A DNA stretch of 64,000 bases from Yersinia hibernica. Its GTDB lineage: Bacteria; Pseudomonadota; Gammaproteobacteria; Enterobacterales; Enterobacteriaceae. Positions 6,735 through 60,736 of this stretch are shown here, piece by piece. Both the position numbers and the translations under genes were made by a program. The notes below the pieces were generated by a model. That model searched no databases, was not told the origin of the DNA, and saw only the letters and a list, made by a program, of their open reading frames with translations. How positions within the stretch are numbered: position 1 is the stretch's first letter; the number at the start of each line of letters is the position of its first letter. The stretch is from the NCBI RefSeq assembly GCF_004124235.1, contig NZ_CP032487.1, positions 1,674,001 to 1,738,000 of the forward strand, read 5' to 3'.

Positions 6735-8261
6735 ATGACACGAAGCAATGTAGAAGTTCCAGATGATGTGCAGGCTTGGGTCAGCGATGGTCGCTACAAA
6801 GAAGGTTTTTTTACACAACTTGCGACTGATGAATTGGCGAAAGGCCTCAATGAGGATGTCATTCGCGCCATTTCAGCGAAGCGTAATGAACCGGAATGGA
6901 TGTTGGAATTTCGTCTCGGTGCCTATCGCAGCTGGCTGGAAATGGAAGAGCCGCACTGGCTGAAAGCACATTATAACAGCCTGGATTATCAGGATTATAG
7001 CTATTACTCCGCGCCGTCATGTGGCAGCTGTGATGATAGCTGTGATTCGCAGCCCGGAGCGGTACAACAATCATCTGCCGACAGTGCAGCGCCACGAGAT
7101 CTGTCTGAGCAGGCGCTGAATGAGTACCTCACCGCCGAGGTGGAATCTGCTTTTGCCCAGTTAGGGGTTCCGGTGCGTGAAGGGGCTGAGGTGGCCGTTG
7201 ACGCCATTTTTGACTCCGTTTCGGTGGCGACCACTTACCGGGGCAAACTGGCCGAGCAGGGCATTATTTTTTGCTCTTTCGGCGAAGCCATTCAGGAATA
7301 CCCAGATTTAGTGCGTAAGTATTTGGGCTCCGTGGTGCCGGCCAAAGATAACTTTTTTGCCGCACTCAATGCCGCGGTGGCCTCTGACGGCACCTTTGTC
7401 TATGTCCCCAAAGGTGTGCGTTGCCCGATGGAGCTCTCGACCTACTTTCGCATTAACGCCGCCAAAACCGGGCAGTTTGAGCGCACTATTTTGATTGCCG
7501 ACGAAGACAGCTATGTCAGTTATATCGAAGGATGCTCTGCACCCGTTCGTGATAGTTATCAGTTACATGCGGCAGTGGTTGAGGTCATTTTGCATAAAAA
7601 TGCAGAAGTGAAATATTCCACCGTGCAGAACTGGTTTGCTGGGGCTGACAGCACGGGCGGCATTCTCAATTTTGTGACCAAGCGCGCATTGTGTGAAGGG
7701 GCCGGGTCGAAAATGTCGTGGACTCAATCAGAGACCGGTTCGGCCATTACTTGGAAATACCCCAGTGTGATTTTGCAGGGCGATAACTCCATCGGTGAGT
7801 TTTTCTCTGTCGCCCTAACTAACGGTCATCAGCAGGCGGATACTGGCACCAAAATGATCCACATTGGCAAAAACACCAAATCAACAATTATCGCCAAGGG
7901 GATCTCTGCCGGTCATAGCCAAAATACCTATCGTGGTTTGGTGAAAATACTGCCCGGTGCGGATAACGCCCGTAATTTCACGCAATGTGACTCGATGCTA
8001 ATTGGCCCGGACTCTGGCGCTCACACTTTCCCATATGTGGAAGTGCGCAATAACTCGGCGCAATTGGAGCACGAAGCGACAACCTCAAAAATTGGTGATG
8101 ACCAACTGTTTTATTGTTTGCAGCGCGGCATCAGCGAAGATGATGCCATCTCAATGATTGTTAATGGTTTTTGTAAGGATGTATTCTCCGAGTTGCCGTT
8201 GGAGTTTGCTGTTGAAGCACAAAAATTGTTAGCGATTAGCCTGGAACACAGTGTCGGTTAA
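6735..8261 (+). CDS. sufB: Fe-S cluster scaffold subunit SufB
   Basis: 508 residues, against 495 in E. coli SufB. The core is nearly identical, including [11 protein letters not shown] with the acceptor cysteine at residue 418 (E. coli C405). The ATG at 6735 gives the family N-terminus; a longer reading from 6696 would overlap sufA and lacks homology. A stretch after residue 110 ([19 protein letters not shown] region) makes the protein about 13 residues longer, next to a cysteine cluster CGSCDDSC. SufB, with SufC and SufD, builds nascent Fe-S clusters using sulfur from SufSE. Confidence 0.96.
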
Positions 8262-16230: not shown

Positions 16231-16307
16231 TGGTGCGTTCTAATGGACTCGAACCATCGACCCCCACCATGTCAAGGTGGTGCTCTAACCAACTGAGCTA
16301 AGAACGC
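16231..16307 (-). tRNA. tRNA-Val (anticodon GAC), copy 1
   Basis: A 77-nt cloverleaf including encoded CCA. The acceptor stem starts GCGTTCT, the D arm is AGCTCAGTTGGTTAGAGC, the anticodon loop CTTGACATG gives GAC, and the T arm has GGTTCGAGTCC. The acceptor differs from copies 2 and 3 (GCGTTC/GAACGC versus GCGTCC/GGACGC) with compensating changes, like the E. coli valV/valW pair. Confidence 0.97.
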
Positions 16308-16345
16308 ATAGGGAGACAATTTGATATGACTGGCAAACGCAAGAG

Positions 16346-16422
16346 TGGTGCGTCCGAATGGACTCGAACCATCGACCCCCACCATGTCAAGGTGGTGCTC
16401 TAACCAACTGAGCTACGGACGC
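16346..16422 (-). tRNA. tRNA-Val (anticodon GAC), copy 2
   Basis: 77 nt with CCA encoded; acceptor stem GCGTCCG/CGGACGC and anticodon GAC. Same strand and 38 nt upstream of copy 1, so probably one precursor transcript. Confidence 0.97.
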
Positions 16423-16460
16423 GCATGATACTCTTGGTCTTTTAGGTAACATGATAATGT

Positions 16461-16537
16461 TGGTGCGTCCGAATGGACTCGAACCATCGACCCCCACCAT
16501 GTCAAGGTGGTGCTCTAACCAACTGAGCTACGGACGC
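16461..16537 (-). tRNA. tRNA-Val (anticodon GAC), copy 3
   Basis: 77 nt with CCA encoded and identical to copy 2 by eye. It is the promoter-proximal copy of the three-gene array. E. coli has two such genes at the matching place beside mdtK. Confidence 0.97.
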
Positions 16538-16783
16538 ACATCTTATCGGGTTGTTACCCTTTATTTTTACTCTTTTTTACCTGCCATCATTGTCTGACAG
16601 CGGGGACGAATATTAACGAGCCGCCCGTCTGCTGGCAAGGGGAAAAACGTAATATTCAGCGCAAACTGACGTAATTGCTGCGCTTTTACTCATTGCGCTG
16701 TTTTTTTCTTCATATTTTGTCACTGTCTTGGGTATTAATCGCCAGCATGAACGCCAGCAGTTAATACCCGTAATAATAGGCCG

Positions 16784-47503: not shown

Positions 47504-48409
47504 ATGGATATCAAGCAACTTATCTATCTCTGTAATTTAGAGCGCGAGCGGCACTTTGGCCGAGCGGCTGAAGCCAGCTTTGTGAGTCAGCCGACATTGT
47601 CGATGCGCTTGAAGAATCTGGAGCGGGAGCTGGGGGTTGCACTGATAAACCGTGGCAATAATTTTGAAGGATTTACTGCGGAAGGTGAACGGGTTTTAGC
47701 CTGGGCAAGGGAAATTGTCTCTGTTTATCAAGGGTTGAAACTGGAAATCGAATCGCTAAAAAATGGTTTGAATGGCACCTTGCGTATTGGCGTGGTGCCG
47801 CAATGCAGTATCTCATTGGCACCGCTGCTAAAAAATGCCAGCGAGCGCTATCCCCAGTTGGACTATCAGGTATCGGTGTTAAGTGCGGATCAGTTGCTGG
47901 AGGCGCTGACTGGCCATTCAGTTGATGTGGGCATGGGCTTTTTTGAATTAGCCACATTGAATGGGCTACATTTTCAAACGCAATCCCTGCTTGATCGCGG
48001 GGTTGATGTCATCTTCCACCCGCAACATTTCCCCCAATTGATGGGCACTGAAGCATTAACATTGGCTCAAATTGCCCCATTGCCACTTTGTCTGGCAGAA
48101 CCTAGCCGCTATTTTCGCCGCTATCTGGATAATAGTTTTCGTGATGCGGGTCTGTCATTGCATGCCCGGCTGGAAAGCGCGTCTATATTTCAGTTACTGC
48201 AAGGGGTTTTTGTCGGGCTGGGTTGCGGCCTGTTTCCACAGGGCAGTTTGCTGGCGGAGATGTCGCCGGCGCTACAGCGCAGGCCCGTGAATATCCCCAA
48301 GATGAGCCGGCATGCTGCGGTGGTGGTGGCTGAACCAGGGCGGGTGACGCCGCTGGCCCAGCACTTCTTTGATGTCACCCAGGCGTGGCTGACTGCCCAC
48401 GAGGCCTAA
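47504..48409 (+). CDS. LysR-family transcriptional regulator
   Basis: 301 residues. Helix-turn-helix with RERHFGRAAEASFVSQPTLS and MRLKNLERELG, followed by a substrate-binding-like effector domain. The regulon is unknown. Start at 47504 (MDIKQLIYL) rather than the TTG at 47498. It converges on the CMD gene 13 bp away, so it does not share a promoter with it. dtpA is divergent and could be a target. It could not be matched to a named E. coli regulator. Confidence 0.85.
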   Translation: MDIKQLIYLCNLERERHFGRAAEASFVSQPTLSMRLKNLERELGVALINRGNNFEGFTAEGERVLAWAREIVSVYQGLKLEIESLKNGLNGTLRIGVVPQCSISLAPLLKNASERYPQLDYQVSVLSADQLLEALTGHSVDVGMGFFELATLNGLHFQTQSLLDRGVDVIFHPQHFPQLMGTEALTLAQIAPLPLCLAEPSRYFRRYLDNSFRDAGLSLHARLESASIFQLLQGVFVGLGCGLFPQGSLLAEMSPALQRRPVNIPKMSRHAAVVVAEPGRVTPLAQHFFDVTQAWLTAHEA

Positions 48410-48422
48410 AGAGCGGCGGTCA

Positions 48423-49634
48423 TCAAACCGTTCGCCCTAAAGTGTGGCGCAGGCGGTTGACCCAGCCTGCCGAGGCGACATGGAAGATAATACTGAGTAG
48501 CTGCCTATCACTGAGGCCCAGAGCCTGTAGCGGCGCAATATGTTGCTGGCTAAAGCGCTCTGGAGCACGGGTCAGTTCGGCGGTGAGCTGAATAAGTGGG
48601 TGGAACATGTGGTTCTGGGGCGGTATTGCCAGCGCATTATCAATCCCTGACTGCAGCGCGGCTAAGAACGCGGTATTTGCTGTCAGTTGCCGCCAATGAT
48701 GTTGATGTTTGGCTTGGCAGTAGCGGCTGCCATTGATGCGCGCACTGGCCAGCGACACTAACTCCAGCCAATCAGAGGGCATGTGCTGCGGGCGAGATAG
48801 CCGGGTGGTTATCGCGCGATAGGCTTGGAAACTCGCTTGATGATGTGCCAGTAACTGATTGAGTGTGATCTCGCTCTGCGCCGGGGAATCTGGCCCGGCC
48901 ACCGGCTTGTTTTCCTGCCGTGAGGGCAGCCAACCTTGCCAGTGCGGCTGACTTTGCGACACCGGGTCTGATGGTGCATCTTCCATCCGCGGGAAGCCGG
49001 GTAGTATGACGGTCGGATAGCCAGCTTGAGCAGAAAAGCCCGCGACCACGCGGGCCTGGAATCCGACAAAACCAATTATCTGCGATAAAACAATAATATC
49101 GCTATCCGTGAGCCCCACATCGGCCAATTGCTGGAGTGCATGCCGGTCAATTAATGTCGGTTGGCTGGCGAGTTGGCGAGCATATTGCGTGATTTGGGTG
49201 AGCCGGATATTGCTTTCCCGCGAGGCATCGGGGCTGGAAAGTGGTGTGAGGCGGGCAGCATAGTGGCTACATAAGCGCTGAATGCCGGTCACTTGGGCGA
49301 CGGTTAGGGCGCTGCTCAATCTGTCATACAGCGAAAATGTATTTTCACGATTTAGGTCAACAACCGGAGGGAACAGCGCCTGATACATGGCATCTGCCGC
49401 AGATAATATCGCGGTGTGGTGGTGCAAGGTGTCATCTAATACAGTGGGAATATTATTAGCTAAGCCCAGCAGAAAAATACCCTGTTCGATAATATTTCCC
49501 TCCTGATAGGTATTATCGATATCACCGCTATTTCCTGTGTTATTTTCGCCCGCCCCGCATGTTGCCAAAGCCCGGCCACTGCGCTGAGTCTCATGATACC
49601 AATGCGCATTATCTTGCCGTCTAAATTGCACCAT
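48423..49634 (-). CDS. Two-domain carboxymuconolactone-decarboxylase/AhpD-like protein
   Basis: 403 residues from ATG 49634, which has GGAGG upstream. It reads as two CMD-fold halves joined by a Pro/Ser-rich linker (about 225-265). The N-half has IIVLSQIIGFVGFQARVVAG, the C-half ASARINGSRYCQAKHQHHW. The CxxC redox pair of AhpD is not present: one cysteine remains in the C-half and none at the matching place of the N-half. It looks like a fusion of the two CMD proteins known from peptide-transporter operons, but no such transporter adjoins it. Activity unknown. Confidence 0.7.
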   Translation of the reverse strand: MVQFRRQDNAHWYHETQRSGRALATCGAGENNTGNSGDIDNTYQEGNIIEQGIFLLGLANNIPTVLDDTLHHHTAILSAADAMYQALFPPVVDLNRENTFSLYDRLSSALTVAQVTGIQRLCSHYAARLTPLSSPDASRESNIRLTQITQYARQLASQPTLIDRHALQQLADVGLTDSDIIVLSQIIGFVGFQARVVAGFSAQAGYPTVILPGFPRMEDAPSDPVSQSQPHWQGWLPSRQENKPVAGPDSPAQSEITLNQLLAHHQASFQAYRAITTRLSRPQHMPSDWLELVSLASARINGSRYCQAKHQHHWRQLTANTAFLAALQSGIDNALAIPPQNHMFHPLIQLTAELTRAPERFSQQHIAPLQALGLSDRQLLSIIFHVASAGWVNRLRHTLGRTV

Positions 49635-49976
49635 AGTGACCTCCGTTAGGGGCAGCAACACGCCAAAGTTAAAGGTGGATGAGTCACCACCGCGCTAGGT
49701 GATTGGTGTGGATAAATGAGCAAGAGGGTGGATATTGTGGTATCTGGCAGGCAGTTATGCAGAGTGTGAGGGGTCAACATCAGCGAGATATCCTGTTGTT
49801 TTATGGAGTGAACACAGTGGATATCATTGCTGATCGAGTTGGCGAGATAAAATAATGTTAAACCATAATTCATAACTAAAAGTAATAACATATTATTATA
49901 TATAACAAAAATGTCGTTACGTTAGTTGATAACTGGCTAAAGGGCGCGGGTAAGAATAAAAAATCTGCCAGTAGAC
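49635..49976. other. Intergenic region before the fimbrial locus
   Basis: 342 bp. Near 49955-49967 the minus strand shows a weak hairpin (TCTACTGGCAGA) followed by TTTTTT that may end the fimbrial transcript. Otherwise no feature was recognised. Confidence 0.35.
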
Positions 49977-50624
49977 TTAGATAGCAAATGCAAAGTTAAT
50001 GGTTGTTGAACCATCAATCTGAGTATCTTCAGTGACCGGGCCATTCATGGTGGCAGCCCCTGCTAATACAGTATGGACAGCAATATCAATACTAAAGGTT
50101 TTGCCCGCCTTTAATGAATTGTCTGCATTAGACCAACCCTGTGTGTAATTTTTGTACATTCGTGATGTGGTAGTACAATTAGGTTCTGCACCAGACTCTG
50201 GCGGGCCATCACAGCGAATATTTGCAGAGACGTTATCGACCTTGGGGTTTGTCATCAGGAACGTGTAGTAGCCAATTTTGCCTGTACCATTAACAAAACC
50301 CAAACCATAATTACCGCCTCCGGTAGCACTTTCAGACCCACTGCGATTATCCTGTACTGTATAGGTGAGATAAGTCTCGGTATCACAGGTCGTGACCCAC
50401 GTTTTTGTCACTGTCGGCAAGGCGGTGGTGGTCGTGCCGGATTTTATATTGGTGGCTGAAATTTTGCCTAAATCATAAACACCATTATCAGGCGCGATGA
50501 CCGTACAAGTAGGGACACCCAGTTTTCCTTTGACCTTTAAGTCAGCTGTCGGCGTGGCCGCCTGTGTTGCAAAAGATAAAACTACCGGTGCAAGCAGCAT
50601 TAATTTGGCGATATATGCTTTCAT
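49977..50624 (-). CDS. DUF1120 fimbrial-type subunit, divergent paralogue
   Basis: 215 residues from ATG 50624: signal peptide MKAYIAKLMLLAPVVLSFAT, then a DUF1120 domain. It aligns with the four array subunits throughout (PTADLKVKGKLGVPTCTV; ends STTINFAFAI), but at moderate identity. It has four cysteines; array members have two, and the extra pair lies in IRCDGPPESGAEPNC. It is the last gene of the locus and may be read through from the array. The extra loop could make it a tip, adaptor or variant subunit; this is inference. The 113-bp gap upstream has an eroded copy of the array terminator (50681-50712). Confidence 0.8.
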   Translation of the reverse strand: MKAYIAKLMLLAPVVLSFATQAATPTADLKVKGKLGVPTCTVIAPDNGVYDLGKISATNIKSGTTTTALPTVTKTWVTTCDTETYLTYTVQDNRSGSESATGGGNYGLGFVNGTGKIGYYTFLMTNPKVDNVSANIRCDGPPESGAEPNCTTTSRMYKNYTQGWSNADNSLKAGKTFSIDIAVHTVLAGAATMNGPVTEDTQIDGSTTINFAFAI

Positions 50625-50737
50625 ATAATAATGTCGAATATGGCAATAATCCGACAGCTCCCCAATAAGGTTAAAACTAAAGTTAAGGGCCAAAATATTC
50701 TTTTAGCCCTTATGCCGTAAATTGATATTGGTGCGGA

Positions 50738-51376
50738 TTAGATCCCGAAAGCGAAATTCATGGTCATTGAACCATCCAGTTCAGCATCTTCCGTGATTGG
50801 ACCGCCCATCGTGGTGGTGCCAGCCAACATTGGGCTCACTGTGATATCAGCCACAAACACTTTACCGGTGCTCTGGGTGTTAGCCGCAGATGACCAACCG
50901 GTGCGCAGACCAGTGGTCAGACTGGCTGTTGTTGCTGCTGCAAACGTTGATGATGCAGAAGAGAACAAGTTAGACGCTTTGCCGTCTACAGTGCCGTTCT
51001 TAATCAGTGCAGTGTAGTAACCGATTTTGCCGGTCGTGTTCACATTACCCAGGCCAAAGTTAGTGGTGGCAACAGCACTGGCAGATGCTGCGCGGTTATC
51101 GACGGGCATGAAGTTCAGATAAGTATCAGCATCACAGGTCACCGTCCAAGTTTTCGTCATTGGGGTCAGCGCAGTCGTGGCTGTGCCTGATTTCACTAAA
51201 GATGAAGACAATTTACCGAAATCATAAACACCTTCATCTGGAGAAGCGACGGTGCAGCTTGGAACAGTCAGTGTACCGATAACTTTCAATTCAGCTGTCG
51301 GAGGAGCGGCATGTGCTGCAGTCATACCCAGAACCAGAGAAGATAAAACAGTCAGACCAATCAGTTGCTTTTTCAT
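50738..51376 (-). CDS. DUF1120 fimbrial-type subunit, array copy A
   Basis: 212 residues from ATG 51376 (signal peptide MKKQLIGLTVLSSLVLGMTA, cleaved after AHA). ATG 51397 would add seven residues before the signal peptide and lacks a ribosome site. The domain carries one cysteine pair (VPSCTVASPDEG and WTVTCDADTY) and ends in a beta-strand rich MNFAFGI, like pilins that donate a strand. It differs from copies B-D at about four bases near its 3' end; one changes S to N two residues before the FAFGI end. It sits beside a chaperone-usher pair, so it is likely a secreted, polymerised surface subunit. Confidence 0.85.
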   Translation of the reverse strand: MKKQLIGLTVLSSLVLGMTAAHAAPPTAELKVIGTLTVPSCTVASPDEGVYDFGKLSSSLVKSGTATTALTPMTKTWTVTCDADTYLNFMPVDNRAASASAVATTNFGLGNVNTTGKIGYYTALIKNGTVDGKASNLFSSASSTFAAATTASLTTGLRTGWSSAANTQSTGKVFVADITVSPMLAGTTTMGGPITEDAELDGSMTMNFAFGI

Positions 51377-51466
51377 GTGTAAGATATCCAAATTCATAAT
51401 GTAGGGTAAATGAAGATTTGTCTGTCAGCATGTGGATGTAAGCTCTATTTTGAGTTTCATCAAAAC

Positions 51467-51480
51467 ATGATCTAGATCAA
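51467..51480. promoter_or_regulatory. FNR-like box upstream of copy A
   Basis: On the minus strand TTGAT-CTAG-ATCAT, nine of ten matches to TTGATNNNNATCAA; 91 nt before the gene. Confidence 0.55.
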
Positions 51481-51549
51481 TTTATTTCGTTGGAGTGATT
51501 AAACAATAAACAGGCGTGGGCGTATATCGGAATGGAAGTGGACTTGATG

Positions 51550-51563
51550 TAAGAATATTCCTA
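51550..51563. promoter_or_regulatory. RcsAB-type box upstream of copy A
   Basis: TAAGAATATTCCTA, exactly the RcsAB box consensus, 174 nt before the gene and 69 nt beyond the FNR-like box. Confidence 0.65.
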
Positions 51564-51796
51564 CGAAATTTTTATCTTATTAAATCCATTATTATCAATG
51601 TGTTAATTGTGAAATTAATGCTCAGAAATAATCATTTTTGATGGATCCGAGTGACGAAAAAAGCGGGAGATGGGTATCTGTTTGCTCTACCGCCATCGTG
51701 AGTCAGTTATCCTCGATATGAGGGAGAAAATACACGCTTATTAGCATTGGTGTATTCTCTTTTATTTGTGAAAAAATACTGTTATCAATAAAACCA

Positions 51797-51837
51797 AAAC
51801 AAAAAATAAGGGCCGAAATAATATTCCGGCCCTTATT
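51797..51837 (-). terminator. Terminator of copy B
   Basis: AATAAGGGCCG / CGGCCCTTATT, a perfect 11-bp stem, then TTTTTTGTTTT on the minus strand, 26 nt after the gene. Confidence 0.9.
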
Positions 51838-51862
51838 CACTATTAATTTGTCTTCGCGGTAA

Positions 51863-52501
51863 TTAGATCCCGAAAGCGAAACTCATGGTCATTGAACCAT
51901 CCAGTTCAGCATCTTCCGTGATTGGACCGCCCATCGTGGTGGTGCCAGCCAACATTGGGCTCACTGTGATATCAGCCACAAACACTTTACCGGTGCTCTG
52001 GGTATTGGCCGCAGATGACCAACCGGTGCGCAGACCAGTGGTCAGACTGGCTGTTGTTGCTGCTGCAAACGTTGATGATGCAGAAGAGAACAAGTTAGAC
52101 GCTTTTCCGTCTACAGTGCCGTTCTTAATCAGTGCAGTGTAGTAACCGATTTTGCCGGTCGTGTTCACATTACCCAGGCCAAAGTTAGTGGTGGCAACAG
52201 CACTGGCAGATGCTGCGCGGTTATCGACGGGCATGAAGTTCAGATAAGTATCAGCATCACAGGTCACCGTCCAAGTTTTCGTCATTGGGGTCAGCGCAGT
52301 CGTGGCTGTGCCTGATTTCACTAAAGATGAAGACAATTTACCGAAATCATAAACACCTTCATCTGGAGAAGCGACGGTGCAGCTTGGAACAGTCAGTGTA
52401 CCGATAACTTTCAATTCAGCTGTCGGAGGAGCGGCATGTGCTGCAGTCATACCCAGAACCAGAGAAGATAAAACAGTCAGACCAATCAGTTGCTTTTTCA
52501 T
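51863..52501 (-). CDS. DUF1120 fimbrial-type subunit, array copy B
   Basis: 212 residues, same start, signal peptide and cysteine pair as copy A; the C-terminus is MSFAFGI instead of MNFAFGI. By eye identical to copies C and D at DNA level. It has its own terminator and its own upstream control region, so each copy can be transcribed alone. Function as a surface subunit is inferred from the neighbouring chaperone and usher. Confidence 0.85.
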   Translation of the reverse strand: MKKQLIGLTVLSSLVLGMTAAHAAPPTAELKVIGTLTVPSCTVASPDEGVYDFGKLSSSLVKSGTATTALTPMTKTWTVTCDADTYLNFMPVDNRAASASAVATTNFGLGNVNTTGKIGYYTALIKNGTVDGKASNLFSSASSTFAAATTASLTTGLRTGWSSAANTQSTGKVFVADITVSPMLAGTTTMGGPITEDAELDGSMTMSFAFGI

Positions 52502-52591
52502 GTGTAAGATATCCAAATTCATAATGTAGGGTAAATGAAGATTTGTCTGTCAGCATGTGGATGTAAGCTCTATTTTGAGTTTCATCAAAAC

Positions 52592-52605
52592 ATGATCTAG
52601 ATCAA
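52592..52605. promoter_or_regulatory. FNR-like box upstream of copy B
   Basis: Same 14-bp site as at 51467, one period (1125 bp) further on. Confidence 0.55.
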
Positions 52606-52674
52606 TTTATTTCGTTGGAGTGATTAAACAATAAACAGGCGTGGGCGTATATCGGAATGGAAGTGGACTTGATG

Positions 52675-52688
52675 TAAGAATATTCCTA
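52675..52688. promoter_or_regulatory. RcsAB-type box upstream of copy B
   Basis: TAAGAATATTCCTA, one period after the copy A site. Confidence 0.65.
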
Positions 52689-52921
52689 CGAAATTTTTAT
52701 CTTATTAAATCCATTATTATCAATGTGTTAATTGTGAAATTAATGCTCAGAAATAATCATTTTTGATGGATCCGAGTGACGAAAAAAGCGGGAGATGGGT
52801 ATCTGTTTGCTCTACCGCCATCGTGAGTCAGTTATCCTCGATATGAGGGAGAAAATACACGCTTATTAGCATTGGTGTATTCTCTTTTATTTGTGAAAAA
52901 ATACTGTTATCAATAAAACCA

Positions 52922-52962
52922 AAACAAAAAATAAGGGCCGAAATAATATTCCGGCCCTTATT
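52922..52962 (-). terminator. Terminator of copy C
   Basis: Same 11-bp stem and T run as after copy B. Confidence 0.9.
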
Positions 52963-52987
52963 CACTATTAATTTGTCTTCGCGGTAA

Positions 52988-53626
52988 TTAGATCCCGAAA
53001 GCGAAACTCATGGTCATTGAACCATCCAGTTCAGCATCTTCCGTGATTGGACCGCCCATCGTGGTGGTGCCAGCCAACATTGGGCTCACTGTGATATCAG
53101 CCACAAACACTTTACCGGTGCTCTGGGTATTGGCCGCAGATGACCAACCGGTGCGCAGACCAGTGGTCAGACTGGCTGTTGTTGCTGCTGCAAACGTTGA
53201 TGATGCAGAAGAGAACAAGTTAGACGCTTTTCCGTCTACAGTGCCGTTCTTAATCAGTGCAGTGTAGTAACCGATTTTGCCGGTCGTGTTCACATTACCC
53301 AGGCCAAAGTTAGTGGTGGCAACAGCACTGGCAGATGCTGCGCGGTTATCGACGGGCATGAAGTTCAGATAAGTATCAGCATCACAGGTCACCGTCCAAG
53401 TTTTCGTCATTGGGGTCAGCGCAGTCGTGGCTGTGCCTGATTTCACTAAAGATGAAGACAATTTACCGAAATCATAAACACCTTCATCTGGAGAAGCGAC
53501 GGTGCAGCTTGGAACAGTCAGTGTACCGATAACTTTCAATTCAGCTGTCGGAGGAGCGGCATGTGCTGCAGTCATACCCAGAACCAGAGAAGATAAAACA
53601 GTCAGACCAATCAGTTGCTTTTTCAT
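52988..53626 (-). CDS. DUF1120 fimbrial-type subunit, array copy C
   Basis: 212 residues, identical to copies B and D by eye (C-terminus MSFAFGI). Central member of the array with full control regions on both sides. Identity in the silent third positions and in the spacer shows either very recent amplification or continuing gene conversion. Confidence 0.85.
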   Translation of the reverse strand: MKKQLIGLTVLSSLVLGMTAAHAAPPTAELKVIGTLTVPSCTVASPDEGVYDFGKLSSSLVKSGTATTALTPMTKTWTVTCDADTYLNFMPVDNRAASASAVATTNFGLGNVNTTGKIGYYTALIKNGTVDGKASNLFSSASSTFAAATTASLTTGLRTGWSSAANTQSTGKVFVADITVSPMLAGTTTMGGPITEDAELDGSMTMSFAFGI

Positions 53627-53716
53627 GTGTAAGATATCCAAATTCATAATGTAGGGTAAATGAAGATTTGTCTGTCAGCATGTGGATGTAAGCTCTATTT
53701 TGAGTTTCATCAAAAC

Positions 53717-53730
53717 ATGATCTAGATCAA
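53717..53730. promoter_or_regulatory. FNR-like box upstream of copy C
   Basis: Same site as in the other units. Confidence 0.55.
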
Positions 53731-53799
53731 TTTATTTCGTTGGAGTGATTAAACAATAAACAGGCGTGGGCGTATATCGGAATGGAAGTGGACTTGATG

Positions 53800-53813
53800 T
53801 AAGAATATTCCTA
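53800..53813. promoter_or_regulatory. RcsAB-type box upstream of copy C
   Basis: TAAGAATATTCCTA, one period after the copy B site. Confidence 0.65.
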
Positions 53814-54046
53814 CGAAATTTTTATCTTATTAAATCCATTATTATCAATGTGTTAATTGTGAAATTAATGCTCAGAAATAATCATTTTTGATGGATCCGA
53901 GTGACGAAAAAAGCGGGAGATGGGTATCTGTTTGCTCTACCGCCATCGTGAGTCAGTTATCCTCGATATGAGGGAGAAAATACACGCTTATTAGCATTGG
54001 TGTATTCTCTTTTATTTGTGAAAAAATACTGTTATCAATAAAACCA

Positions 54047-54087
54047 AAACAAAAAATAAGGGCCGAAATAATATTCCGGCCCTTATT
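54047..54087 (-). terminator. Terminator of copy D
   Basis: Same 11-bp stem and T run as after copies B and C. Confidence 0.9.
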
Positions 54088-54112
54088 CACTATTAATTTG
54101 TCTTCGCGGTAA

Positions 54113-54751
54113 TTAGATCCCGAAAGCGAAACTCATGGTCATTGAACCATCCAGTTCAGCATCTTCCGTGATTGGACCGCCCATCGTGGTGGTGCCAGCC
54201 AACATTGGGCTCACTGTGATATCAGCCACAAACACTTTACCGGTGCTCTGGGTATTGGCCGCAGATGACCAACCGGTGCGCAGACCAGTGGTCAGACTGG
54301 CTGTTGTTGCTGCTGCAAACGTTGATGATGCAGAAGAGAACAAGTTAGACGCTTTTCCGTCTACAGTGCCGTTCTTAATCAGTGCAGTGTAGTAACCGAT
54401 TTTGCCGGTCGTGTTCACATTACCCAGGCCAAAGTTAGTGGTGGCAACAGCACTGGCAGATGCTGCGCGGTTATCGACGGGCATGAAGTTCAGATAAGTA
54501 TCAGCATCACAGGTCACCGTCCAAGTTTTCGTCATTGGGGTCAGCGCAGTCGTGGCTGTGCCTGATTTCACTAAAGATGAAGACAATTTACCGAAATCAT
54601 AAACACCTTCATCTGGAGAAGCGACGGTGCAGCTTGGAACAGTCAGTGTACCGATAACTTTCAATTCAGCTGTCGGAGGAGCGGCATGTGCTGCAGTCAT
54701 ACCCAGAACCAGAGAAGATAAAACAGTCAGACCAATCAGTTGCTTTTTCAT
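54113..54751 (-). CDS. DUF1120 fimbrial-type subunit, array copy D
   Basis: 212 residues, the copy nearest the chaperone gene and identical to B and C by eye. Its upstream region follows the others only up to the RcsAB-type box; beyond it the sequence is unique and leads to the chaperone stop 288 bp away. This makes D the likely founder end of the array. Confidence 0.85.
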   Translation of the reverse strand: MKKQLIGLTVLSSLVLGMTAAHAAPPTAELKVIGTLTVPSCTVASPDEGVYDFGKLSSSLVKSGTATTALTPMTKTWTVTCDADTYLNFMPVDNRAASASAVATTNFGLGNVNTTGKIGYYTALIKNGTVDGKASNLFSSASSTFAAATTASLTTGLRTGWSSAANTQSTGKVFVADITVSPMLAGTTTMGGPITEDAELDGSMTMSFAFGI

Positions 54752-54841
54752 GTGTAAGATATCCAAATTCATAATGTAGGGTAAATGAAGATTTGTCTGT
54801 CAGCATGTGGATGTAAGCTCTATTTTGAGTTTCATCAAAAC

Positions 54842-54855
54842 ATGATCTAGATCAA
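54842..54855. promoter_or_regulatory. FNR-like box upstream of copy D
   Basis: Same site as in the other units. Confidence 0.55.
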
Positions 54856-54924
54856 TTTATTTCGTTGGAGTGATTAAACAATAAACAGGCGTGGGCGTAT
54901 ATCGGAATGGAAGTGGACTTGATG

Positions 54925-54938
54925 TCAGAATATTCTTA
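54925..54938. promoter_or_regulatory. RcsAB-type box upstream of copy D (variant)
   Basis: TCAGAATATTCTTA, differing at two positions from the other units. Homology with the other units ends here, so this is the duplication joint. Confidence 0.55.
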
Positions 54939-55039
54939 CTAGACTATTTTTCTAGCGGCTTAATGTATTGGGAATAACCTTTAGTGATTTAAAACTCAAG
55001 GGCACCATTCTCTGGCGGCCCCTGAGCATTAGACGAGTA

Positions 55040-55780
55040 TTAACGTGTGACAGGAAGAACAACTTCCGCTTGCACAAAACCGTAGCGGCTCAGTGGGGTG
55101 ACTTTCACTGAAGTGGGTGAAGACTTAATCGGGAATTGTTTGCTGGTGCCCGGCATAATATACGGGTTACCCAGTGGCACCACTTCATTACTCGGGACTA
55201 AAACCACCTGCGGGCCGAGGCGAACAACATGTTTACCCGGGTTTTTAATGGTCAGATTATTGCCGGATGCGGAGAAAACCAGCTCCTCCCAAGGATTTTT
55301 AATCTGGGGGACGGCATTGGGTTGGATCAAAAAGCCGATTTCCTGGCGGATAGGCATCACAGTCGCATTGCCCGGCACTTGTTCAACCCCTTCAAATGCA
55401 GCTTTGAGCAATACTTCGCTGTCCAGCACGGTGCCTTTTTTCAGCACAAAGTTAACTTGCTGACTTTGGCCGGCATCAATGCGTGTCACTGGTGGTGAAA
55501 TCAAAATCTGCTTACTGAAATCTTTGCCATCAATATCAATCAGTTTTGTCACCAGCAAAATAGGGTTGGCCGAGGTATTATCAATGGTAAAACTCGCGCG
55601 CCCCTCGCTTTCTTTTAATATGACGGTGGTACTTTCTAATTTGAATGATGCATAAGATGCCACACTCCAGCAGCTCATCAGCACCAGTAAATTGAAAACA
55701 AGAAATGCTTTAACACGGTTAAATACTGTGCTGCTTGCCACCGTATTTAATCGGCGCTGACTGACAATCATATTTTTCAT
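55040..55780 (-). CDS. PapD-like periplasmic fimbrial chaperone
   Basis: 246 residues with a long N-terminus before a signal segment (about 24-44, cut near ASYAS). Two immunoglobulin-like domains follow: FKLESTTVILKESEGRASFT, the VTRIDAGQSQQVNFVL strand and MPIRQEIGFLIQPNA. It should fold subunits and bring them to the usher. Located 57 bp after the usher gene with AGGA upstream. Only this chaperone serves the five intact subunit genes. Confidence 0.88.
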   Translation of the reverse strand: MKNMIVSQRRLNTVASSTVFNRVKAFLVFNLLVLMSCWSVASYASFKLESTTVILKESEGRASFTIDNTSANPILLVTKLIDIDGKDFSKQILISPPVTRIDAGQSQQVNFVLKKGTVLDSEVLLKAAFEGVEQVPGNATVMPIRQEIGFLIQPNAVPQIKNPWEELVFSASGNNLTIKNPGKHVVRLGPQVVLVPSNEVVPLGNPYIMPGTSKQFPIKSSPTSVKVTPLSRYGFVQAEVVLPVTR

Positions 55781-55837
55781 AATTCATCCTGTATCTGGAA
55801 TATCGGCTGACTTTCTCTTTGCTGACCCTGACTCATA

Positions 55838-58219
55838 TTAATGGCAAACCGCATCAGCAACTTCATACAATGTATCCGGGTCAAATTTCTCCGGCTCCAC
55901 GTAACTCACAATACACTCCCCACTGTTCGCGGCCTTAACCCGCAGCGTGGCACCAATTGTATTGTTTTCCAACATAAAATTACCATCCCCAATCAGGGTG
56001 CCCAAGAAATTACCTTTGGCATCCAACACATTGGCCCCGACAGGCATCGGTTCGCCGCGACTGTTACGGATGGTCAACAGCAACTGGCGCATTTCTGTCG
56101 CCTCAAAATTGCGAGTCGCGACCGAGCCACGGCTCATCATCAAATCGGCACTGGTACTGTTGAGCCGCACATTCAGGGGCAATGTTTTGGTGCTGATTTG
56201 GGCCTTGGATGCACTATAAGGCATTACTGATGGCAACAGCGCTGTGCCAGCATAATCGGTTATGGACATCCCACTACTCGGTGATGATACCCGTAAATTT
56301 GACTGACTCGGCACGTTCACTATTGCAAAGGTGTCACCAATGGCCGATGCCGAAGTCGCAAAGGTATTGTTCGCGTAAGCCATTGAACCACTAGATGCCA
56401 GATACGCAGAACGACTATTGTTATTGGCCTGAGAAATCCCACCCGCTAGTTGTGAATAGGCTGTTTTCACATTCATTGCGCCATTAACCCGTTGCTGATT
56501 ATTACCGCCCGTTACCCCCACGGAATACCCTTTGTTATCACCCCAAGCCCCTTGATAAGTGCTGCCCAGCGTCGTATTACCATTATTACGTTGCATCCGG
56601 CCAGTGAGAGATCCATTACCCAGTGGCATACTAAGTCCCAAATAGACAGCATTGCGCCCCTGTGAACTTGACTGAACACTCAACGTGGTGGTCACTCGGC
56701 CAAATTGTTCACTGGCGGAAAACGTATGGGAGACACTGTTCTCTGCCTGATAATACATATTATTAGACAAAACATAGGAAAATGCGCCCCAGCGAGGATG
56801 GGCCCAGGTCACGGCTGCTGATGTGGCATTTTTCAGTTTGCCAACGGACAGGTCAGCCAAATTATTACCGCCACTTAGGGCATTATCAGGTGACCAGTAA
56901 TTGCTTGATTCGTAAACCGTCGATAAAGACGCACTCAGGTTGCCGTTAATAGACACCTGATTTTGTAATCCGAGTTGGTAACCTTGTCCGGCACCTTGGG
57001 TATTGGTATAGCTAGCGGTGGCTGAAATCCAAGCACTCTCAAACCCGCTGTATAGATTTTGCGCACTGATATTTTGATAATCTGCAGAAAGCAGCCCAGC
57101 GGTAGTGACCTGAAATGCATTCGCCGGACTAAATGCCATCTCGCCAGTTGCCAGTAAGGGAGACTTGCTTTCACTGCCACTGAGATTGTCGCGATAGCGA
57201 CCCAGTGCGAGCTGGTAGGTTGTCGCTTGTTGTTCAAAATTGGGATCAAGGGCGTTCGCTACGGTAAAATGTTGCTGGGTGCCGTCTTCTTCAATCACAT
57301 CAACATCCGTAGGGACACCGCTGGAGAAATTGCTGATATTGGATAATGAGAATGGGCCCGGTGCCACCACGGTGCGGTAAATAACCCGCCCACGCTGGCG
57401 AATTTCGATAGTGGCGTTGGTGTTGGCAATCCCTTCAATGGGCACAACCAGTTGGGTGTTATTGAGTTGGGCATTATCGGAATAAAGCTGGGCACCCATC
57501 ACTGGCAGACCAGAGTATGTATTGGCGACTAGGCCAAATTCCCCCAGCTGCACCACCGATTTTAAGGATTCGACGGCACGTAATGCGTAGGTTTCTTGAT
57601 TATCATAATGACCCACGCCCTGATTATAATTATAAGAGCCCCGGTTACGTACCACCCAGTTATAAAGGTTGATACCCGGCTCGAATTGCCCTTGAAATAA
57701 ATTCAGATTGTCGTTGCTGTTCTCAATACGCTGGCCGAAAATATTATAATTAAGCAACAGGGCGTGACCGCCTTGTTGATATTCACTGCCCTCCAATTCA
57801 GGGTCAAAGGCTTCCTGCGGTAAGGTCATTTCCACGCGAAACTGGCCGGGAAACAGCTTTACCACGACACCGGGCCACAGAGTTTCAATATTTTCACAAC
57901 TATCGTCGTCACTGTCTTTATGACGTAATTTCAGTGTCATCAATAATTTTCGGTCGGCACATAACTGACCTTCATTGCCAAATGTGGCTTCCGTGCGATA
58001 GGTTTTGCTGGCATTAATAATAATGGTGACGTCATGCTGACCGGGCAAAAATTTATCCTGCCCGCTGAAAAAATCGGCTAATTCTGCTGAGTAGCCCAGC
58101 CCCTCTAGCGTTTTTATATCAAATGCTACCGCGCCCTCTTTTGTCGCGGACATAGCCGTGACAGGGAGGAGGGGAAGCAGGCACGCGGTATAAAAAAGTG
58201 GGAGCTTACGGCTGAACAC
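55838..58219 (-). CDS. Outer-membrane fimbrial usher (FimD/PapC family)
   Basis: 793 residues, somewhat short for an usher (usually 800-880). Start is GTG at 58219 with AGGAT upstream. Signal peptide ends near AMSA. The N-domain, a beta-barrel with repeated aromatic strands, plug-type segment around 215-330 (VVAPGPFSLSNISNFSSG is the usher signature region) and a C-domain with the cysteine pair in SGECIVSYVEP and VADAVCH. It threads chaperone-bound subunits across the outer membrane. No two-domain adhesin gene is present beside it. Confidence 0.9.
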   Translation of the reverse strand: MFSRKLPLFYTACLLPLLPVTAMSATKEGAVAFDIKTLEGLGYSAELADFFSGQDKFLPGQHDVTIIINASKTYRTEATFGNEGQLCADRKLLMTLKLRHKDSDDDSCENIETLWPGVVVKLFPGQFRVEMTLPQEAFDPELEGSEYQQGGHALLLNYNIFGQRIENSNDNLNLFQGQFEPGINLYNWVVRNRGSYNYNQGVGHYDNQETYALRAVESLKSVVQLGEFGLVANTYSGLPVMGAQLYSDNAQLNNTQLVVPIEGIANTNATIEIRQRGRVIYRTVVAPGPFSLSNISNFSSGVPTDVDVIEEDGTQQHFTVANALDPNFEQQATTYQLALGRYRDNLSGSESKSPLLATGEMAFSPANAFQVTTAGLLSADYQNISAQNLYSGFESAWISATASYTNTQGAGQGYQLGLQNQVSINGNLSASLSTVYESSNYWSPDNALSGGNNLADLSVGKLKNATSAAVTWAHPRWGAFSYVLSNNMYYQAENSVSHTFSASEQFGRVTTTLSVQSSSQGRNAVYLGLSMPLGNGSLTGRMQRNNGNTTLGSTYQGAWGDNKGYSVGVTGGNNQQRVNGAMNVKTAYSQLAGGISQANNNSRSAYLASSGSMAYANNTFATSASAIGDTFAIVNVPSQSNLRVSSPSSGMSITDYAGTALLPSVMPYSASKAQISTKTLPLNVRLNSTSADLMMSRGSVATRNFEATEMRQLLLTIRNSRGEPMPVGANVLDAKGNFLGTLIGDGNFMLENNTIGATLRVKAANSGECIVSYVEPEKFDPDTLYEVADAVCH

Positions 58220-58379
58220 AAGGATATCCTAAATATAATGAGCCAATCATTTATCGATAGTAGTGCATTTGGTGATTTAATTTAAAATATAATTAAACCC
58301 AATTTGAAATGGGAGTAATTATTAATGATTGAACTCATGGCTGAGATAATTAATCACTCCAGCCGTTGCTAACAACAGG

Positions 58380-58624
58380 CTAATTAAACCGCAAAGGTAA
58401 GCTCAGCGTGAGCGAGCCGTCAATCTGAGCATCATCAGTGATAACGCCCTTCATCCCAGTAAAGCCTGCTAATGTTGGTGTGATACCCAAATCAGCACTG
58501 AAGATTTTAGCCGAGTTATCGGCCCCATAGTGATATTCCACCCATGAGGATAATTACGATGCATAGTCATTTGAGCATTTGCCACGGAACCGGCATAGAA
58601 GAGTTTTGTATCTTGGCCATCAAC
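58380..58624 (-). pseudogene. Truncated, frameshifted DUF1120 subunit remnant
   Basis: The minus strand encodes the C-terminal third of a DUF1120 subunit. VDGQDTKLFYAGS matches VDGKASNLFSSAS of the array. Then, in another frame, come SWVEYHYGADNSAKIFSADL and VITDDAQIDGSLTLS, which match TGKVFVADI and ITEDAELDGSMTM. A one-base frameshift near 58525-58545 separates the two parts. The signal peptide and first half are missing: the control region joins directly to the middle of the gene. Stop TAG at 58380-58382. It is a dead sixth member on the far side of the usher. Confidence 0.75.
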
Positions 58625-58640
58625 TCTGACCATCAATTAC

Positions 58641-58654
58641 ATGATAAAAATCAT
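58641..58654. promoter_or_regulatory. FNR-like box upstream of the pseudogene
   Basis: ATGAT-AAAA-ATCAT, eight of ten matches to the FNR consensus half-sites; it stands where the array's box stands relative to the next site. Confidence 0.4.
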
Positions 58655-58723
58655 TATGTTTCATTAGAATGATTAAACAATAATTTAGGCGGGAGGTACA
58701 TCAGAATGGAAGTGAACTTGCTG

Positions 58724-58737
58724 TAAGAATATTCTTA
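58724..58737. promoter_or_regulatory. RcsAB-type box upstream of the pseudogene
   Basis: TAAGAATATTCTTA, inside a perfect 16-bp palindrome GTAAGAATATTCTTAC; 69 nt beyond the FNR-like box, the same spacing as in the array. It may now drive the usher and chaperone genes. The rest of 58738-58928, up to sapF, shows no recognised feature. Confidence 0.6.
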
Positions 58738-58928
58738 CTAAATGCTCTAGTCATTAAAATAAGACTTATTGCTAGATGACCACCGTAATGAAGACTCTGA
58801 GGTATTATGCTGGCGCAGCATGACTGCACCACTAAGTTATGCGGGGGCCAACAGTCTATCAAACCCGTATTTGCCAGCCCCTAACCACCACGCTAATGCC
58901 GCCGCTGATACTTTACTGTGCCGAGTTG

Positions 58929-59744
58929 CTAGAAGTTGGCACTGTCCCGACGCCAAGCATCTGCAGTCAATGCCTCACCAAAGTGACTGGAAATCAATCG
59001 CTTGGTCAGTTCATGCAGCGGGGAGGCAAGCACTTCGGCGGTACTGCCGCGCTCCACAACCTCACCCTCATGCATCACCATCACCTGGTCACTGATATGC
59101 TTCATCATCCCTAAATGCTGGGTAACATAAATATAGGATATGCCGTGCTTTTCCTGTAATTCCAGCATCAGATTGATTATCTGTGAGCGCATGGACATAT
59201 CCAGCGAGGCCAAAGCTTCATCAGCAACAATGACTTTCGGTTGCAGAATTAACGCCCTGGCCAGCGCAATACGCTGCTTCTGGCCGGAGGCCAACATATG
59301 AGGATAATAATTCGCGTGGTCGGGCAACAACCCCACTTGTCGTAAAGTCTGGTAGATCCGCTGTTCACGCGCGGCGGCATCCAAATCGGTGTTCAGTTTT
59401 AGCGGTGCATCCAGCAGTTGACCGATACGCTGGCGCGGGTTGAGCGACGTGCTGGGATCTTGGAAAATCATCCGAATACGTTGGCTGCGATAGGCATAAT
59501 CACCATACACCAGCCGATGGTCATCAATGAGCAACTCTCCGTCGGTGGGCTCAATCATGCCCGACAACATTTTGGCCAAGGTGGATTTACCTGAGCCATT
59601 CTCGCCAATAACCGCCAGTGTTTGTCCCTCCCGTAGGGTGAAACTAACGGATTTAACCGCCTCCACATGTTGACGACGAAATAAGCCGGTGCGATAGCGG
59701 AAAGTTTTGCTGAGATTACGGACTTCGAGCAGCGTCTCGGCCAT
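58929..59744 (-). CDS. sapF: Peptide ABC transporter ATPase SapF
   Basis: 271 residues. Walker A GENGSGKST, a diverged signature LASGQKQRIALARAL and Walker B VIVADEALASLD. Last gene of sapABCDF; the start overlaps the sapD stop by one base. The Sap system affects resistance to antimicrobial peptides and exports putrescine in E. coli. Its 3' neighbour here is the fimbrial remnant. Confidence 0.95.
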   Translation of the reverse strand: MAETLLEVRNLSKTFRYRTGLFRRQHVEAVKSVSFTLREGQTLAVIGENGSGKSTLAKMLSGMIEPTDGELLIDDHRLVYGDYAYRSQRIRMIFQDPSTSLNPRQRIGQLLDAPLKLNTDLDAAAREQRIYQTLRQVGLLPDHANYYPHMLASGQKQRIALARALILQPKVIVADEALASLDMSMRSQIINLMLELQEKHGISYIYVTQHLGMMKHISDQVMVMHEGEVVERGSTAEVLASPLHELTKRLISSHFGEALTADAWRRDSANF

Positions 59745-60736
59745 TATTGCTCCTCCAGATTTAAGGGGAAATGGCAGGCAAAGGCGTGGTTTTTCACCAA
59801 TCGCAAGCGCGGTGTTTCAATACAGGTTTTTTGTGCATAGGGACAGCGCGGGCCCAGACGGCAGCCAATGGGCAAGTGTTCCAGTGATGGAATAGCCCCC
59901 GGCAAGGTATTTAGCCGACTTTTATGCGGTAACGAGCGGCCAAAATCGGGCATCGCCCGGATCAGCGCCTGAGTATAAGGGTGGTGTGGGGCGGCCAGTA
60001 GGTCTTCACAAACGGCACTTTCCACTGTTTGGCCGCAATACAGCACATTAACCCGGTCGGCCCACTTACTCATCATCTGCAAGTCATGGCTGATTAACAA
60101 AATAGTGGTGTTGTTATTCTGATTAAGCCGTGCCAGTAAGCGGAAAATTTGTGCTTGAGTAGTCGGCTCCATCGCATTGGTGGGTTCATCGGCAATCAAT
60201 AACCGGGGTTGATTTGCCAGCGCGATAGCAATCATGACTTTTTGGCATTCGCCCTCGGTTAGCTCATAGGGGTAGCTGCGCATAATGTCTTTGTGGTCTT
60301 TAATTCCCACCCGATGCAGCAGCTCGATGGCCCGACGTTTGCGCCAATGAAAGCGCTGCCACCAGCGGCCTTTGTAAGTCCAGCCGGGGATGGCTTGCAC
60401 CAGTTGCTGGCCAATATTTTCTGATGGATCCAGACAAGATTGCGGTTCCTGAAAAATCATCGAAATATTGTGGCCGATCACCTTACGCCGCTCGCGCGGG
60501 GTCAATTGCAATAAATCAATATCGTCAAAGCGAAAACGGTCTGCGGTAATACGCCAATTGTCTTTACTTACCCCGCAGATTGCTTTGGCAATCAAACTTT
60601 TACCCGAGCCGGACTCACCTACTAGCCCACGAATTTCGCCCTCTGTCAGGGTAATACTGATGCGGTCAACGGCTTTGACCATTCCTTCCGCGCTCATAAA
60701 TTCAATGGTGAGGTTACGAATATCAAGCAACGGCAT
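59744..60736 (-). CDS. sapD: Peptide ABC transporter ATPase SapD
   Basis: 330 residues, as in E. coli SapD. Walker [14 protein letters not shown], an unusual signature [15 protein letters not shown], Walker [14 protein letters not shown], and the C-terminal oligopeptide-transport extension with [14 protein letters not shown]. It also supports potassium uptake through Trk in E. coli. One-base overlaps with sapC and sapF indicate tight coupling. Confidence 0.96.

What the first reader, a model, noticed from the sequence alone, without database searches (positions are those of the whole stretch)
50738..54924. Four near-identical fimbrial-type subunit genes in an exact 1125-bp tandem array
Subunit genes at 50738, 51863, 52988 and 54113 repeat with an exact period; B-D and all spacers look identical by eye. 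Chaperone-usher loci normally have one major subunit gene. Each copy has its own control region and terminator, so copy number should directly set subunit dose, and the array can grow, shrink or swap sequence by recombination. A tandem array of self-contained DUF1120 units beside a single usher and chaperone is not a textbook arrangement.
Basis: partly seen in the sequence, partly recalled or inferred. Interest (0 to 1): 0.9.

Follow-up and report, generated by a model that had tools for sequence, protein, structure and literature searches.

The report
Fourfold pilin cassette array in Yersinia
A Yersinia chromosome carries an inserted surface-fibre gene cluster in which a single fibre-building gene, with its own switch region, has been copied four times in a row, probably to adjust how much fibre protein is made under envelope-stress control.

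Summary
Four 219-codon DUF1120 genes repeat with a period of exactly 1125 bp. B, C and D and the three spacers are identical; A differs by 4 nt (1 residue). The predicted subunit fold resembles chaperone-usher pilins. The array sits in a chaperone-usher locus of beta-fimbria type, inserted between sapF and a CMD-family gene; that site lacks the locus in 10 of 10 relatives where I located both genes. None of 24 other Yersinia genomes shows more than two near-identical tandem copies, though 11 of them are drafts. Each array gene follows an RcsAB-type operator. A strict form of the motif occurs at 8 places in the 4.8 Mb genome, all upstream of this subunit family, counting a relic at the operon head. 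A carries the majority (older) base at the four variable sites; differences lie only at the array's outer edges, as recombination within a tandem array predicts. Best reading: a recently amplified, Rcs-gated pilin cassette that raises subunit supply. Dosage and regulation are inferred. Novelty: a new variant of a known kind; the array is unusual, its parts ordinary.

The parts
50738..51397 (-). subunit gene copy A (DUF1120, 219 codons; likely start at codon 8); the variant outer copy
   Evidence: majority base at the 4 variable sites
51863..52522 (-). subunit gene copy B
52988..53647 (-). subunit gene copy C, identical to B
54113..54772 (-). subunit gene copy D, identical to B and C; first after the chaperone
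51398..51862 (-). 465-nt spacer A/B (terminator of B, about 205 nt, control region of A); repeated identically at 52523-52987 and 53648-54112
   Evidence: 86-88% identical over most or all of its length to subunit-subunit spacers in Y. massiliensis
51550..51563 (-). RcsAB-type box of A, 13/14 to the published consensus
52675..52688 (-). RcsAB-type box of B
53800..53813 (-). RcsAB-type box of C
54925..54938 (-). RcsAB-type box of D (slightly different, at the upstream edge of the array)
51467..51480 (-). FNR-like dyad TTGATCTAGATCAT (9/10 to the recalled FNR consensus); also at +1125, +2250, +3375
   Evidence: read; scoring (an overlapping second 9/10 site was printed there for the own genes)
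51804..51838 (-). intrinsic terminator after B: 16-bp stem and T run; identical after C (52929-52963) and D (54054-54088)
   Evidence: fold -29.4 kcal/mol, z -6.1
50684..50712 (-). weaker hairpin after A, possibly leaky, before E
   Evidence: fold -16.2 kcal/mol, z -3.2
49977..50624 (-). fifth subunit 'E'; nearest DNA relative among the loci fetched is the plasmid D-prime gene (72.5% over 93%); best RcsAB score upstream only 10/14
55040..55780 (-). PapD-like periplasmic chaperone
   Evidence: PF00345; NCBIfam PRK09918 302 bits (cut-off 183)
55838..58219 (-). outer-membrane usher
   Evidence: PF00577, PF13954, PF13953; best NCBIfam model PRK15304 422.7 bits (cut-off 723)
58398..58523 (-). relic: C-terminal piece of a subunit gene in front of the usher
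   Evidence: 48% over residues 174-215; described only
58639..58758 (-). control-region copy (74% to the array's) at the head of the usher operon, with a perfect 14/14 RcsAB palindrome at 58724-58737
49662..58928 (.). span between the CMD-family gene and sapF that holds the locus; 0.3-1.3 kb in relatives

Best explanation
This is a chaperone-usher locus of the beta-fimbria kind, acquired as a block between sapF and a CMD-family gene. Its main pilin lies in a self-contained cassette: RcsAB-type box and FNR-like site, DUF1120 pilin, terminator. Shown: the cassette is present four times in the assembly, three times identical, with differences only at the outer edges of the array. Inferred: an ancestral pilin-spacer-pilin' pair and a pilin-E pair recombined, leaving two near-identical pilin genes in tandem; homologous unequal crossing-over then amplified the unit to four, recently enough (or with enough homogenisation) that no interior difference remains. 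Inferred function: the subunit once at the head of the usher operon is now a relic, so the amplified downstream cassettes supply pilin, with output scaled by copy number and gated by the Rcs envelope-stress phosphorelay.
Against: No expression, binding, read-depth or phenotype data. The strict motif was written after seeing the sites, so its selectivity is partly post hoc, and the 37 subunit upstreams are homologous and partly identical, so not independent. The looser motif has 24 other sites in the genome, and its reversed control has 20 hits. The RcsA-like protein scores 63 bits against a 162-bit cut-off. The sigma-70 scan found fewer promoter-like sites than shuffles (11 vs 18.3) and none on the coding strand of the control regions. 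Foldseek found no match at E<=0.001. PMC3161016 notes that beta-fimbrial operons may make thin fibrillae or nonfimbrial structures. Exact identity of B-D fits a young neutral duplication equally well.
Confidence: 0.55

Rival explanations
1. Young neutral duplication: unequal crossing-over made extra copies that have not yet been lost, with no selected dosage role.
For: Interior copies are identical, so the array is young or homogenised. No other of 25 Yersinia genomes shows it. Tandem pilins elsewhere have diverged or decayed: the G011 pair is 89% identical over 915 nt, and G024 has one copy plus a fragment.
Against: All four frames are intact with intact control regions; homologues are under purifying selection. 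This does not exclude neutrality of the extra copies themselves.
Confidence: 0.3
2. Assembly artefact: the true locus has a different number of units.
For: Identical 1125-bp units are hard for short-read assembly; the sequencing technology is unknown to me.
Against: Two-contig genome rated complete. A distinguishable outer copy A and a distinguishable upstream edge at D argue for at least two units. Collapse is commoner than expansion, so the true number could be higher (general knowledge).
Confidence: 0.07
3. Variation reservoir: the copies serve as donors for antigenic change of the pilin by gene conversion.
For: The locus is a mosaic; two further pilin genes, 91-93% identical in DNA to the array genes, lie on the same genome's plasmid.
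Against: Within the array only one residue varies; a reservoir should hold variants.
Confidence: 0.05
4. The five RcsAB-type boxes act mainly as a sponge for RcsAB rather than as operators of extra pilin genes.
For: Five strict boxes within 7.2 kb.
Against: In most relatives scored, the box lies about 164-199 nt before a pilin start, as a promoter element would.
Confidence: 0.03

Closest known systems
Salmonella Stj, the only beta-clade fimbria of Salmonella (PMC3373541, 2012; passages and section 8 read)
   Same: chaperone-usher cluster of the beta clade without a typical adhesin gene; that paper says beta-clade clusters evolved by gene duplication and sequence divergence
   Different: no array of identical stand-alone pilin units is described in what I read; no usher tree was built here, so clade membership of this locus rests on names and models
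Putative beta-fimbriae of Y. enterocolitica O:3/4 (PMC3161016, passages read)
   Same: same genus; 'beta-fimbriae ... major subunit' is the name given by a source to at least ten of the 120 listed homologues
   Different: two putative clusters; no tandem pilin array mentioned in the passages read
Y. massiliensis pilin-spacer-pilin' loci, chromosome and plasmids (L051, L052, L059-L065)
   Same: homologous pilin, spacer, RcsAB-type box and, in several, usher and chaperone
   Different: the second linked pilin is a 53-64% paralogue, or in one case an 89% DNA copy; no array of identical copies
RcsAB-controlled hmsCDE, hmsT and hmsHFRS of Yersinia (PMC4381331, passages read)
   Same: operator consensus TAAGAAT-ATTCTTA
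   Different: those are biofilm genes repressed by RcsAB; here regulation and its sign are untested
P. aeruginosa CupD fimbriae, controlled by RcsB (PMC2696094, title and abstract start seen in listings)
   Same: chaperone-usher fimbria under an RcsB regulator
   Different: a different cluster in a distant genus; no tandem array known to me (recalled)

Membership tests
chaperone-usher fimbriae | usher with PapC_N, Usher and PapC_C domains | tested here: met
   all three above cut-off
chaperone-usher fimbriae | PapD-type periplasmic chaperone in the same locus | tested here: met
   PF00345 69.5 bits; PRK09918 302 bits over cut-off 183
chaperone-usher fimbriae | subunits with the pilin Ig-like fold | tested here: met
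chaperone-usher fimbriae | fibre actually assembled on the surface | not testable with these tools
   needs microscopy
beta-clade (Stj-type) fimbriae | usher falls in the beta clade | tested here: inconclusive
   best NCBIfam model PRK15304 at 422.7 bits is below its 723 cut-off; no usher tree built; 'beta-fimbriae' is only the source name of some subunit homologues
beta-clade (Stj-type) fimbriae | no double-size tip adhesin gene | tested here: met
   the five intact subunit ORFs of the locus are 215-219 residues (E counted from its ATG at 50624); the operon-head relic cannot be judged
DUF1120 (PF06551) | match over the curated cut-off | tested here: met
   28.4 bits vs 21 for A and B (C and D identical to B); E 21.5
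RcsAB-regulated promoters | box TAAGAATATTCTTA upstream | tested here: met
   13/14 before A-D, 14/14 at the operon head
RcsAB-regulated promoters | RcsB and RcsA encoded in the genome | tested here: inconclusive
   RcsB 451.6 bits over cut-off, RcsC over cut-off; the RcsA-like protein is below cut-off, 63 vs 162 bits
RcsAB-regulated promoters | binding and Rcs-dependent expression | not testable with these tools
   no expression or binding data
recombining tandem gene array | interior units identical, outer edges divergent | tested here: met
recombining tandem gene array | copy number differs between isolates of the species | not tested
   the genome set holds one genome per species

The most novel reading that the evidence does not exclude
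A pilin rheostat: RecA-dependent expansion and contraction of Rcs-gated pilin cassettes gives each cell lineage a heritable, reversible setting of pilin dose, and Rcs stress signals act on all units at once. This would be a copy-number alternative to invertible-promoter phase variation in chaperone-usher fimbriae.
Probability: 0.15. Interest if true: 0.75.

Novelty: new variant of a known kind. Interest (0 to 1): 0.5.

Why it matters
Fimbrial clusters can raise pilin output by gene order, extra promoters and stem-loops after the subunit gene (PMC3373541 section 8). Here the main pilin appears as a repeated cassette with its own operator, so dose could evolve in single recombination steps. The placement of strict RcsAB-type operators on this pilin family gives a directly testable link between envelope stress and a poorly studied class of fimbriae; that 2012 paper says no structural or functional information was available for the beta clade.

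Tried and rejected
Phage origin: no megablast match in 50,697 phage records. Known RNA elements: none at the gathering threshold in 48000-60000. Sequence match of the subunit to solved structures: none at E<=1; only fold comparison gave relatives. Sigma-70 promoter scan: nothing on the coding strand of the control regions. Papers: 'DUF1120' gives 1 paper, a database paper; searches aimed at tandem or amplified fimbrial subunit genes (one search returned none) showed no array of identical chaperone-usher pilin units in the abstract starts listed or in the passages that I read of PMC3373541 and PMC9820224; 'beta-fimbriae' with Yersinia 8 papers; RcsB with fimbriae (only the top rows listed). This covers open-access PMC papers only. 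A Bordetella avium precedent that I half recalled was not found. Passages of PMC5829831, PMC6478967, PMC4654587 and PMC7730088 were read and add little; PMC4654587 says beta-fimbrial chaperones carry non-classical anchoring residues, which I did not test here.

Rows dropped or corrected. In one search, 44 subunit upstreams were scored; I used 37 of them, leaving out 7 second or later genes that I judged to lack a control region of their own. Of the 37, the four without the looser motif are own2_D, mas11C6_D, roh_D and roh_Dsolo; mas11C6_D has a 180-nt run of N in its leader. In the automatic ORF set, 29 of 46 subunit ORFs had the motif. The first control (33 of 261) still contained subunit genes and was replaced. 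My notebook says that 12 of 35 loose sites lie beside DUF1120 genes; on recount 11 are upstream of one (the operon-head relic included) and one (C1:2323565) is downstream. Rarity in the genus rests on assemblies: 13 of the 24 other genomes have 3 contigs or fewer, 11 have 20 or more and could hide an array. The order-wide Pfam scan (11 of 394 genomes match, own included) is insensitive to divergent members (it scored 11 own places against 14) and is only a weak negative. One search also printed a second probability, for three sites, not used.

Full report
WHAT IS THERE. The window is G000:C1:1674001-1738000 of a Yersinia genome of two contigs (4,742,939 and 60,496 bp). Four DUF1120 genes lie on the minus strand at exact 1125-bp steps. 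B and C units are identical over 1125 nt; D is identical as far as the upstream edge of the array; A differs at four bases, three silent and one N/S. The array spans 50737-54925. In transcription order the locus reads: control-region copy with a perfect RcsAB palindrome (58639-58758), relic of a subunit C-terminus (58398-58523), usher, chaperone, D, C, B, A, and a fifth, divergent subunit E.

WHERE THE LOCUS SITS. sapF and the CMD-family gene are 9.3 kb apart here. In the 10 relatives where I have both (G002, G003, G004, G006, G007, G008, G011, G013, G014, G015) the gap is about 0.33-0.55 kb in nine and 1.27 kb in G014, which by eye holds another gene. The conserved leader of the CMD-family gene is recognisable here up to about 49945-49963. 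So the whole fimbrial locus is an insertion relative to these. A related operon (usher 91%, chaperone 87% DNA identity) lies on the same genome's plasmid C2, with two pilin genes 91.5-91.9% identical to B.

COMPARISON WITH RELATIVES. The 25 Yersinia genomes held were searched: 17 have a match, 14 of them, own included, at 67% identity or more. A common order is pilin - other subunit(s) - usher - chaperone (L044-L048, L069, L070, L072). Y. frederiksenii has relic - usher - chaperone - one pilin - E, as here but with a single pilin (L066). Y. massiliensis genomes have pilin - spacer of about 465 nt - second pilin of 53-64% protein identity. The only other tandem of similar pilins seen is a G011 pair at 89% over 915 nt; G024 has one copy plus a fragment. 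Only this genome shows more than two near-identical tandem copies; 13 of the other 24 have 3 contigs or fewer, and 11 are drafts of 20 or more contigs in which an array could be collapsed.

HOW THE ARRAY AROSE (inference). The spacer is 86-88% identical over most or all of its length to the Y. massiliensis pilin-pilin' spacer. The A-to-E gap is short, and part of it (52 nt, 79%) resembles the Y. frederiksenii pilin-E gap. A hybrid of the two arrangements would leave two like pilin genes in tandem. Segment identities to the best relative range from 72% to 100% along the locus, as recombination between loci predicts. At the four variable sites A's base is shared by 10, 11, 12 and 12 of 12 homologues, B-D's by 1, 0, 0 and 0. 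All four fall in the outer 244 nt of the unit (0.002 by chance if placed uniformly; the bound was set after seeing them), and D's differences begin at its RcsAB box, at the upstream edge. Divergent outer edges with an identical interior are what unequal exchange or conversion within an array leaves.

CONTROL. PMC4381331 (passages) gives the RcsAB consensus TAAGAAT-ATTCTTA. Each array gene has a 13/14 match 166 nt before its first ATG, and the operon head has 14/14. In simple shuffles of the 44 upstreams, 0 of 880 reached 13 and 10 of 880 reached 12; of the real 44, which are homologous and not independent, 24 reach 12 or more. The strict pattern TARGAATATTCYKA, written after seeing the sites, has 8 distinct sites in the genome: five here and three before the plasmid pilin genes; the reversed control has none. 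A looser pattern has 35 distinct sites, 11 of them upstream of DUF1120 genes (the operon-head relic included), against 20 hits for the reversed control. It occurs within 300 nt of 33 of 37 selected subunit genes against 0 of 173 mechanical non-fimbrial ORFs. An FNR-like dyad (recalled consensus) also lies upstream; scores of 9 or more arise in 25 of 880 shuffles, so this is weaker. RcsB and RcsC are present; the RcsA-like protein is below cut-off. Three identical strong terminators follow D, C and B; a weaker hairpin follows A. No terminator-like site was found between chaperone and D, so D may also be read from the operon. No sigma-70-like promoter was found on the coding strand of the control regions.

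MECHANISM AND CONFIDENCE. Shown: the array in the assembly, the insertion, the edge signature and the operators as sequence. Inferred: amplification by homologous unequal crossing-over (likely), Rcs control (plausible, sign unknown), a dosage role (plausible; a neutral young duplication is the main rival). PMC3373541 section 8 describes an extra promoter for a displaced subunit gene (as in K99) and stem-loops after the subunit gene as ways to keep subunit output high; repeating the whole cassette would be another way to the same end. PMC3161016 notes that beta-fimbrial operons may make thin fibrillae or nonfimbrial structures, so the surface product is open.

NOVELTY. A new variant of a known kind: ordinary chaperone-usher parts in an unusual array. 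The listings and passages seen through described no such array; subscription papers were not searched.

Noticed in passing
L065 7000-18175 (Y. massiliensis plasmid; same length as NZ_CP028488.1): The pilin-pilin' pair is present twice as an inverted repeat, 100% identical over at least 2822 nt, flanking usher and chaperone; recombination there would invert the usher-chaperone block.
   Followed up: partly
L054 10333-17975 (own plasmid): A transposon, by eye Tn3-like with a MerR-type regulator and a heavy-metal P-type ATPase (no family scan), sits in a pilin-pilin' spacer; its ends are inverted repeats flanked by a 5-bp GTGTA duplication. The chromosomal array's spacer shows the uninterrupted site.
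   Followed up: partly
L056 5795-10769 (own chromosome, about 2.32 Mb): A second subunit locus (pilin, E-type, third subunit) shows no usher or chaperone of this family in the 16 kb fetched; a LuxR-type regulator (7109-7708) and a second pilin, 98% identical in DNA to the first, follow.
   Followed up: partly
L090 1435-2046: Another RcsA/LuxR-like regulator, 36 bits to the RcsA model, below its cut-off, beside an ORF that by eye is an IS1-like transposase.
   Followed up: no
window 16231-16541: Tandem repeat of period 115 nt, 2.7 copies, whose unit by eye looks like a tRNA gene; not scanned with ARAGORN.
   Followed up: no
L059 11527-11706: A 180-nt run of N lies inside the leader of the Y. 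massiliensis pilin.
   Followed up: no
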